From Okeania sp. SIO3B5 (lineage in GTDB: Bacteria > Cyanobacteriota > Cyanobacteriia > Cyanobacteriales > Microcoleaceae): 32,226 bases of DNA. Position numbers and translations under genes: made by a program. Under the pieces are notes generated by a model. It was given only the letters and a program-made list of their open reading frames with translations. It ran no database searches and was not told the origin of the DNA. The stretch covers positions 1 to 32,226 of the forward strand of contig NZ_JAAHHG010000068.1 of the NCBI RefSeq assembly GCF_010692555.1, written 5' to 3'. Positions 2,771 through 16,997 of the stretch are shown in pieces (position 1 is the first letter of the stretch; each line of letters opens with the position of its first letter).

Positions 2771-2822
2771 AGTCTTAATAAGTAGTGTATCGAGTATTTG
2801 AGTATTTAGATACTTGAATTAT

Positions 2823-3112
2823 TTGACATCCTCCCCGGCTGTTAGGCGCGGGGATTCCTACTGAGCCGTAGCTCTTCGGCGGGTTGACGCTTTGCTTCGC
2901 ATAGCTGCCGCTAACACAGGGTGCTGCTTCCTTGGCGGTAGTCTGATGCTTCCCTCCACGTCCGCGCACGAGTTTCCGCAATTCGCAGCTCCTCCGGAGG
3001 AGGCGTGCCCCCCGGCAACTAATAACAGTTTAGCATATATCCAATTCACTTGCATGCTCAAATAAAAAGTCGCCCTACAAGGGCGAGGCTTTAAACCCAA
3101 TTTTTCGGTAAT
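2823..3112 (-). ncRNA. Solitary IS200/IS605-type right end with guide-RNA-like fold, no tnpB
   Basis: Read on the minus strand it runs from ATTGGGTTTAAAGCCTCGCC, through GTTGCCGGGGGGCAC, to GGAATCCCCGCGCC, a GGCCGGGG-type hairpin and GATGTCAA. It matches the plus-strand copy at 16577-16842 almost base for base, except for about 25 extra bp here (near 2980-3005) that contain the palindrome CTCCTCCGGAGGAG. The terminal hairpin plus GATGTCAA resembles the 3' ends of TnpB-associated elements. No TnpB frame is adjacent. Confidence 0.6.
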
Positions 3113-3207: not shown

Positions 3208-3390
3208 TACCGAAGAATTAAGGTTTAAAGCCTCTGCTTTAAAGGAGAAACAAGCGGTCGTTTTGCTGGCGCATAACTACGTTAACGCTACGCGACATAT
3301 TTGCGAAGCATGACCTAGGAAAAAGCGTAGCTTCCCGAAGGGTGGGATGGATGGGTTTCCTAACCATATCCAATCGACCAAGAGAAGAAA
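3208..3390 (+). repeat. Second type of composite dispersed repeat
   Basis: It contains ACCGAAGAATTAAGGTTTAA, a CTTTAAAGGAG hairpin, AAGCGGTCGTTTTGCT, a copy of the dispersed small repeat (3299-3321), GCTTCCCGAAGGGTGGGATG and CCATATCCAATCGACCAAGA. The same order is seen at 21155-21310, with a shorter relative at 8548-8640. No coding capacity. Confidence 0.6.
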
Positions 3391-3561
3391 AAAATTTTCA
3401 TGATTAGTCAATCCTCTTCTTTTCAAGGAGAGGTAATTATTAATTATTAATTATTAATTGTTGAATCAGCTTCAATAGCTCTAGTGAAGACGGTTGTTGC
3501 CTATTTTAATCCCGATTGTTAAATAGATGATTTCTATTAGTTTCAAACTAACAATTCAATA
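3391..3561. other. Short AT-rich upstream region with ATTATTA heptamers
   Basis: TAATTATTAATTATTAATTA-type heptamers lie at about 3435-3460. The rest is plain upstream sequence of the next gene, and no defined promoter can be read with confidence. Confidence 0.4.
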
Positions 3562-13675: not shown

Positions 13676-14036
13676 AAAGCCAGCTTTTATTGTAAAATTT
13701 AATTCTCACTCAATTAGTAAAGCTTTTATCTAGGGCTTGCTGATTAAATCTCAAAGCATTTACTGATATTGGTTTTAGCCTTTTTAGGTCTTGAAAAACC
13801 TTGGTTTTCAGCTCCAATAGCTCAAAAAGGAGCGCATTTTGGGCCATATAGGGGAAGAAAATCAAGGGTCAATTTTTCTGACTACCTCTTCTATAATTCC
13901 CATTCCTCAGAGATGTCAATGCTGCACTGAATATTTTAGAAGTTGTGCAACCAAAAACCAAGGTTGAAACACTCAAAGAAACACTTTTCTGAAAATCCTG
14001 TACAACTATCACTTTTTGTTAGCATAGCTCCTCCGC
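13676..14036. other. Intergenic region with an end of an AGGGCTTGCTGA-type element
   Basis: AGGGCTTGCTGATTAA at 13732-13747 and the following 90 bp (GGTTTTAGCCTTTTTAGGTC, GGTTTTCAGCTC) match, inverted, the right part of the MITE at 20857-21146. The copy is incomplete. A CTCCTCCGCAGGAG palindrome lies at 14028-14041. No gene. Confidence 0.5.
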
Positions 14037-14231
14037 AGGAGGCTGTTGTCGCGGGCGGGCAGTCCGAGACATTAAACAAGACGAGGAGCCGACGTAATTC
14101 TACCCGTAGAAAGGTAGTTGATGGCAATGAGTCGTCTACCCACCCTGAGTCTTTCGTTCAGCGAGCGTCTGTTCGATTGATGGATGGGAATCCCGCGCTG
14201 CAGGTGCAGGTCAACGTCGGGAGGATGTCAA
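14037..14231 (+). ncRNA. Solitary IS200/IS605-type right end, second family, no tnpB
   Basis: A GC-rich island in AT-rich DNA. It has GTTGTCGCGGGCGGGCAG, TCTACCCGTAGAAAGGTAG, then GGGAATCCCGCGCTGC, a hairpin closing in GTCGGGAG, and GATGTCAA at 14224-14231. The 5' G-rich block and the 3' hairpin-GATGTCAA end parallel the copies at 2823-3112 and 16577-16842, but the middle differs, so this is another family. No TnpB codons lie upstream. Folding potential suggests an omega-RNA-like transcript or its fossil. The ORFs read through it are not protein-like. Confidence 0.5.
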
Positions 14232-16576: not shown

Positions 16577-16842
16577 CTTTACCGAAAAATTGGGTTTAAA
16601 GCCTCGCCCTTGTAGGGCGACTTTTTATTTTAGTATGCAAGTGAATTGAATATATGCTACAGTGTTATTAGTTGCCGGGGGGCACTCGGAAACTCGTGCG
16701 CGGACGTGGAGGGAAGCGTTAGACTACCGACAAGGAAGCAGCACCCTGTGTTAGCGACAGCTATGCGAAGCAAAACGTCAACCCGCCGAGAAGCTACGGC
16801 TCAGTAGGAATCTCCGCGCCTTCAGGCCGGAGAGGATGTCAA
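16577..16842 (+). ncRNA. Solitary IS200/IS605-type right end with guide-RNA-like fold, no tnpB
   Basis: Plus-strand near-twin of 2823-3112. It has ACCGAAAAATTGGGTTTAAA, the CGCCCTTGTAGGGCG hairpin followed by a T-run, GTTGCCGGGGGGCACTCGG, CCGGAGAGGATGTCAA at its end, and high GC in the middle. The upstream hairpin could terminate incoming transcription. No TnpB frame lies between 16209 and this copy; the tnpB remnant that follows starts downstream, not upstream. High similarity to the other copy indicates fairly recent spread. Confidence 0.6.
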
Positions 16843-16997
16843 GTAAGTCCTGTTAATAAAGCTTTTATCCTAAATTAAAAGCAATAGCTCATGGCTGACG
16901 CCTGAATGTTTAGGGAAGAAGGACGATAGTTTAGCCATGTCTTTTTAAAGCGTGGATGAAAAACGAACGGGCGATTTTAATCGCCTAAAAAATTTGT

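What the first reader, a model, noticed from the sequence alone, without database searches (positions are those of the whole stretch)
2823..3112. Solitary TnpB-guide-RNA-like ends without tnpB, nearly identical to a copy 13.5 kb away
Seen: 2823-3112 (minus) and 16577-16842 (plus) match over about 265 bp with the end hairpin-GATGTCAA, and neither has a tnpB frame upstream. Known: in IS200/IS605 elements this region encodes the omega RNA, whose guide comes from sequence just after the end. Each copy is followed by different sequence, so each would carry a different potential guide. They could be guide-only units that use TnpB supplied in trans, or simple decay products.
Basis: partly seen in the sequence, partly recalled or inferred. 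Interest (0 to 1): 0.7.

Follow-up and report, generated by a model that had tools for sequence, protein, structure and literature searches.

The report
Jumping guide-RNA genes without their nuclease
The two sequences are copies of a small jumping element in a marine cyanobacterium that has lost its nuclease gene but kept, next to a likely promoter, the guide RNA that the nuclease uses, so each new insertion would create a guide RNA against its own empty site, probably served by nuclease made by relatives in the same genome.

Summary
Both stretches are copies of one short non-autonomous IS200/IS605 element in an Okeania genome (about 40 full or partial copies; ends TTTAC|CGAAAAATT... and ...GGATGTCAA). 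The window copies occupy 2823-3107 (-) and 16583-16842 (+). Copy 1 has precise empty sites in two other Okeania genomes. Autonomous ~1.34 kb elements with the same ends and tnpB (ISDra2-TnpB homologues, at least two intact) are in the same genome, as is a tnpA beside the same left end. The short elements are internal deletions that keep a terminator-like left-end hairpin and an extended -10 motif (TGnTAnnnT, the putative tnpB promoter), joined directly to the last ~152 nt of the autonomous element, the omegaRNA scaffold. At least two, probably four, junctions arose separately and all leave the whole scaffold. The scaffold no longer codes for protein, but its base pairs are kept with compensatory changes. 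Rfam's HgcC model also picks out these right ends genome-wide. Best reading: a transposable, self-promoted omegaRNA gene mobilised by TnpA and retained by TnpB, both in trans. Anatomy, mobility and RNA-level constraint are shown; transcription, TnpB loading and cutting are inferred. Passive hitch-hiking is the main rival. Rated a new variant of a known kind.

The parts
16578..16582 (+). target / TnpB TAM-type pentamer TTTAC at the left edge of copy 2
   Evidence: alignment of 28 copies: left flanks diverge upstream of TTTAC/TTGAC; uninterrupted paralogous repeat sites
16583..16842 (+). copy 2 of the short non-autonomous IS200/IS605 element
16604..16620 (+). left-end hairpin followed by a T run; terminator-like
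   Evidence: conserved in nearly all copies
16655..16663 (+). extended -10 motif TGCTACAGT (putative tnpB promoter element of the left end); predicted RNA start near 16670
   Evidence: TGnTAnnnT kept over 36 distinct sequences; homologous position in full-length elements; a strict sigma-70 scan does not call it
16668..16842 (+). omegaRNA scaffold, homologous to the last codons of tnpB plus right end
   Evidence: covariance model R1, E 2.5e-33; structure counts
16751..16772 (+). 22-nt small palindromic repeat inserted in a scaffold loop; absent from other copies
16811..16833 (+). right-end hairpin
16839..16842 (+). right cleavage-type tetramer TCAA ending the element
16843..16858 (+). potential 16-nt guide of copy 2 (flanking DNA)
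3108..3111 (-). target TTAC at the left edge of copy 1
2823..3107 (-). copy 1 of the element
   Evidence: exact empty site in L264 and L265
3070..3086 (-). left-end hairpin of copy 1
3027..3035 (-). extended -10 motif TGCTAAACT of copy 1
2823..3022 (-). omegaRNA scaffold of copy 1, with 25-nt and 22-nt inserts
   Evidence: R1 E 1.1e-27
2980..3004 (-). 25-nt palindromic insert (GCCTCCTCCGGAGGAGCTGCGAATT)
2893..2914 (-). 22-nt palindromic insert
2807..2822 (-). potential 16-nt guide of copy 1; the same 16 nt lie intact next to TTAC at the empty site in G004
14045..14231 (+). third omegaRNA-like right end, of another tnpB group, preceded only by a tnpB C-terminal fragment from about 13910
   Evidence: R1 E 1.9e-16; sequence

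Best explanation
Each copy is a transposable guide-RNA gene: a non-autonomous IS200/IS605 element produced by deleting the tnpB coding region so that the left-end (tnpB) promoter lies directly upstream of the omegaRNA scaffold. A Y1 transposase (TnpA) supplied by other elements moves it by recognising the end hairpins, cutting after TTAC at the left and after TCAA at the right. Its short RNA starts about at the scaffold and runs past TCAA into flanking DNA, which gives a new 16-20 nt guide at every site. TnpB made by the autonomous relatives binds it and cuts the rejoined empty site (TTAC plus guide), so repair from a sister chromosome restores the element. It would thus live off both proteins of its relatives. 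Shown: anatomy, shared ends, precise insertion, different deletion junctions, conserved -10 motif, conserved RNA pairing without coding. Inferred: transcription, TnpB loading, cutting, retention, the identity of the TnpA.
For: About 40 copies in the genome, with defined ends and different flanks. Exact empty site of copy 1 in two Okeania genomes, with the 16-nt guide beside TTAC intact in one of them. Autonomous elements with the same LE and RE and tnpB, two with apparently intact frames (C54/L049, C346/L065); TnpB is a close homologue of ISDra2 TnpB, E 6e-74. tnpA beside the same LE (L078). TGnTAnnnT in 36 distinct upstream sequences: T-15 36/36, G-14 36/36, T-12 35/36, A-11 35/36, T-7 34/36, while the n positions vary. 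Different junctions keep the whole scaffold; no LE-RE pair under 230 bp was seen. Scaffold pairing over 58 sequences: 95.6% of cells paired, 132 cells with both sides changed against 49.8 in shuffles, 9 pairs changed on both sides. Pair 6-24 is U-A in 24/24 Okeania short elements and C-G in 19/19 tnpB elements; pair 46-79 is G-C in 16/24 of the former and C-G in 19/19 of the latter. Rfam HgcC matches these right ends, reaching 8-13 nt past TCAA. Length fits the ~150-nt reRNA and the donor-joint model of ISDra2 (PMC8612924).
Against: No transcript data. A strict sigma-70 scan finds no promoter in copy 2, and the motif is lost in several copies of the second family. Minimum folding energy of either window copy is no better than shuffles (z 0.9 and 0.6). 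One scaffold pair (60-71) is an A-A mismatch in 18 of 24 Okeania short elements. The short elements are closely related, so copies are not independent tests. A 5-bp microhomology (TTAGT) could partly explain the shared deletion boundary. No autonomous element with the U-A/G-C states of the main subfamily was found, so those changes could have arisen in an unsampled tnpB parent.
Confidence: 0.6

Rival explanations
1. Passive short element: an ordinary PATE/MITE mobilised by TnpA. The scaffold is kept only because it overlaps the right end, and the RNA does nothing.
For: The right-end hairpin and TCAA are under DNA-level constraint by TnpA; most copies are young; no expression data; a 286-bp short element with similar ends and no scaffold-start motif exists in the same genome (L011).
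Against: About 152 nt of right end is kept in all main families although the end hairpin takes only about the last 40; internal helices far from the end covary; TGnTAnnnT is kept while neighbouring positions vary.
Confidence: 0.27
2. Decoy: the short-element RNA is made and binds TnpB, but its main effect is to titrate TnpB away from autonomous elements or from chromosomal cutting.
For: Short copies are a large share of all omegaRNA loci in the genome; scaffold pairing is kept.
Against: The 3' boundary and TTAC adjacency, which matter only for targeting or transposition, are intact in nearly all copies.
Confidence: 0.07
3. Simple decay: leftovers of tnpB elements that lost their middle one by one.
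For: The genome holds many broken tnpB copies, and the 14045-14231 right end looks like one.
Against: Copies share one junction and near-identical sequence at different sites with precise ends and empty sites, so they transposed as short elements.
Confidence: 0.03
4. Domesticated guide RNAs that regulate host genes with a nuclease-dead TnpB.
For: RNA-guided TnpB-like repressors (TldR) exist elsewhere (PMC13418256, abstract).
Against: Copies are numerous, recently moved and have unrelated guides; the related TnpB examined keeps the RuvC-type motifs (alignment).
Confidence: 0.03

Closest known systems
PATEs (palindrome-associated transposable elements) / MITEs of IS200/IS605
   Same: short, no protein, both end hairpins, left target tetramer, right TCAA-type end, many copies, mobilised in trans
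   Different: these keep the complete omegaRNA scaffold and the -10 motif of tnpB directly upstream; that cassette is not part of the PATE definition (from memory; literature searches found no description)
reRNA/omegaRNA of ISDra2 TnpB (PMC8612924, PMC10097598)
   Same: RNA from tnpB 3' end plus right end, ~150 nt, guide from flanking DNA, TAM equals target site; cognate TnpB here is a close homologue
   Different: here the RNA unit is separated from tnpB and would be its own gene, not processed from tnpB mRNA
Stand-alone omegaRNA loci reported for IscB-rich genomes such as Ktedonobacter racemifer (recalled from memory, not found in the library)
   Same: omegaRNA without adjacent nuclease, presumed to act in trans
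   Different: those concern IscB; here it is a TnpB family with defined transposable units, promoter fusion and several likely separate origins
Rfam RF00062 HgcC
   Same: model matches the right ends of this genome with its 3' end 8-13 nt beyond TCAA
   Different: scores stay below the gathering cut-off; HgcC is curated from archaea (from memory)

Membership tests
IS200/IS605 family element | insertion next to a fixed short target (TTAC/TTGAC) without target duplication | tested here: met
IS200/IS605 family element | imperfect hairpin near each end, right end closing in TCAA | tested here: met
IS200/IS605 family element | encodes TnpA and/or TnpB | tested here: not met
   no such frame in either window copy; therefore filed as a non-autonomous derivative
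PATE/MITE derived from IS200/IS605 | short, non-coding, multi-copy, ends shared with an autonomous element in the genome | tested here: met
PATE/MITE derived from IS200/IS605 | moved by TnpA in trans | not testable with these tools
   a tnpA with the same LE is present; movement shown only by empty sites
TnpB omegaRNA | homologous to the right end of tnpB elements, with conserved covarying structure | tested here: met
TnpB omegaRNA | guide drawn from the 3' flank with the TAM at the empty site | tested here: met
   by sequence only: empty site; TTAC next to the guide in G004
TnpB omegaRNA | transcribed, bound by TnpB, directs cleavage | not testable with these tools
   no expression or biochemical data
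independent transcription unit | own promoter upstream of the scaffold | tested here: inconclusive
   TGnTAnnnT conserved, but strict consensus scan negative

The most novel reading that the evidence does not exclude
Repeatedly evolved transposable guide-RNA genes: separate tnpB elements in different cyanobacterial genera each lost the nuclease gene by a deletion that fuses the tnpB promoter to the omegaRNA scaffold, giving elements that multiply as self-programming guides and use TnpA and TnpB of their relatives.
Probability: 0.5. Interest if true: 0.78.

Novelty: new variant of a known kind. Interest (0 to 1): 0.62.

Why it matters
If true, the guide and the nuclease of a TnpB system have split into separate mobile parts, with tens of guides sharing one enzyme, as guides share one effector in CRISPR. 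It would explain how elements without TnpB avoid loss on excision, and it offers natural tests of TnpB working in trans.

Tried and rejected
Rfam at gathering threshold: nothing in the window or in five related loci. Single-sequence folding energy: no better than shuffles, so structure was tested by covariation instead. An alternative helix (columns 10-15 with 95-100) showed no compensatory change. Orthologous insertions to compare element and flank conservation: only two pairs, too few. An apparent lead that copy 2 would target its repeat relatives was weakened: most uninterrupted repeats compared match the guide for only about the first 10 nt. The window region around 3222-3500 belongs to a different dispersed repeat.

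Full report
Observation. The two stretches are real and related (85% over the whole length including a 25-nt insert; E 3e-94). They are two of 41 matches in the 11.06 Mb genome of the window. The organism most likely belongs to Okeania: a family-specific pattern hit only Okeania records. Aligning 28 copies fixes the ends: TTTAC (sometimes TTGAC or another NTTAC) then CGAAAAATTGGG..., and ...GGATGTCAA; left and right flanks differ in every copy.

Mobility. Joining the two flanks of copy 1 as a query finds the uninterrupted site in two other Okeania genomes, exact at the junction and without duplication. In G004 the 16 nt that would be the guide of copy 1 lie intact next to TTAC. Copy 2 lies inside a dispersed ~100-bp repeat whose other copies run through the junction.

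Parents. The genome holds at least 151 OrfB_IS605 matches and 20 Y1 transposase matches. A subset of tnpB elements of about 1.34 kb has the same left end and the same right end. Two of those I read have an apparently intact TnpB (L049, L065); several are frameshifted. TnpB of L049 matches Pfam OrfB_IS605 and Cas12f1-like TNB and ISDra2 TnpB in the PDB (8bf8, 8h1j; E 6e-74). A tnpA with the same left end is present in L078. The last ~152 nt of these elements, from codons L-V-A-G-G onward, corresponds to the right part of the short elements.

Anatomy. From left to right the short element has a terminator-like hairpin with a T run, a TGnTAnnnT motif at the position of the putative tnpB promoter of full-length elements, the scaffold, the right-end hairpin and TCAA. 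In the Okeania family the motif ends 4 nt before the scaffold, so the predicted start is at the scaffold boundary (inference). Over 36 distinct upstream sequences the five defining positions are kept in 34-36, while the four n positions vary. A strict consensus scan does not call copy 2, and several second-family copies have lost the motif.

Separate origins. A second family in another genus (G025, G028, G031) keeps more of the leader and joins the scaffold a few codons earlier; it has its own scaffold sequence type. L130/L182/L125 and the second element of L167 have still other junctions. Two origins are well supported and four are likely. A shared TTAGT microhomology may have favoured one boundary. 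Of 82 short LE-RE pairs seen, none is under 230 bp and 80 have the scaffold-start motif; the sample was partly gathered by similarity to these elements, so this is not an unbiased count.

RNA-level constraint. In the short elements the tnpB frame is broken by stops, a frameshift and inserts. Yet in an alignment of 58 short and tnpB right ends, excluding the right-end hairpin, 95.6% of cells pair, 132 cells carry a change on both sides against 49.8 in shuffles, and 9 pairs do so (1 of 500 shuffles). Within short elements alone: 97.5% paired and 36 double-changed cells against 14.5. Related sequences can exceed such shuffles without structure, but sliding the partners by 1-3 columns drops pairing to 25-42% and double changes to 2-12 cells. 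Pair 6-24 is U-A in all 24 Okeania short elements and C-G in all 19 tnpB elements; pair 46-79 is G-C in 16 of 24 of the former and always C-G in the latter. Pair 60-71 is lost in most Okeania short elements. The GAC near -99 and the GUC at -5 to -3, unchanged in the alignment, could form the pseudoknot described for ISDra2 (PMC10097598); this is an inference.

Independent recognition. The Rfam model HgcC, searched against the genome, gives 111 matches at E up to 10, all below the gathering score. Of 65 that I compared, chosen on contigs where I knew or expected a right end, 51 coincide with a listed one, and the model's 3' end lies 8-13 nt beyond TCAA. A model built here gives 146 matches in the genome and three full-length ones in the window.

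Mechanism. ISDra2 TnpB binds a ~150-nt reRNA and cuts the donor joint next to the TAM, and sister-copy repair is proposed to restore the transposon (PMC8612924); TnpB can act as a drive of this kind in plasmids (PMC11870625). The simplest reading is that short elements take part in this cycle with borrowed TnpA and TnpB. Nothing here shows transcription or TnpB binding.

Comparison and novelty. As DNA these are PATE/MITE-type derivatives of IS200/IS605. As RNA they are TnpB omegaRNAs without tnpB. The combination with a tnpB promoter and several separate origins was not found in the library searched, which lacks most subscription papers; stand-alone omegaRNAs for IscB and PATEs in Geobacillus are recalled from memory only. 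I therefore rate it a new variant of a known kind.

Noticed in passing
whole genome; e.g. window 16722-16855: Rfam RF00062 HgcC, an archaeal RNA whose function I recall as unknown, matches TnpB-type right ends including the first nucleotides of the guide; HgcC may itself be an archaeal omegaRNA.
   Followed up: partly
window 13910-14231: A third omegaRNA-like right end from a different tnpB group, with only the tnpB C-terminal piece left.
   Followed up: partly
window 16751-16772, 2893-2914, 2980-3004: Small palindromic repeats of 22 and 25 nt inserted in scaffold loops of some copies and absent in others; a larger CCCACCCC...GGGGTGGG hairpin replaces a stem in L057 and L180 and probably others.
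   Followed up: partly
L241, L183, L146: Another short-element family of about 370-440 bp with an extra block, similar between copies, between the left end and the scaffold; no Rfam match.
   Followed up: no
L167 (G004): Two short elements of different junction type in direct head-to-tail contact; the right end of one adjoins the TTTAC of the next.
   Followed up: no
L011 1501-2058: Two unrelated short elements nearly back to back; the second has similar ends but no recognisable scaffold.
   Followed up: no
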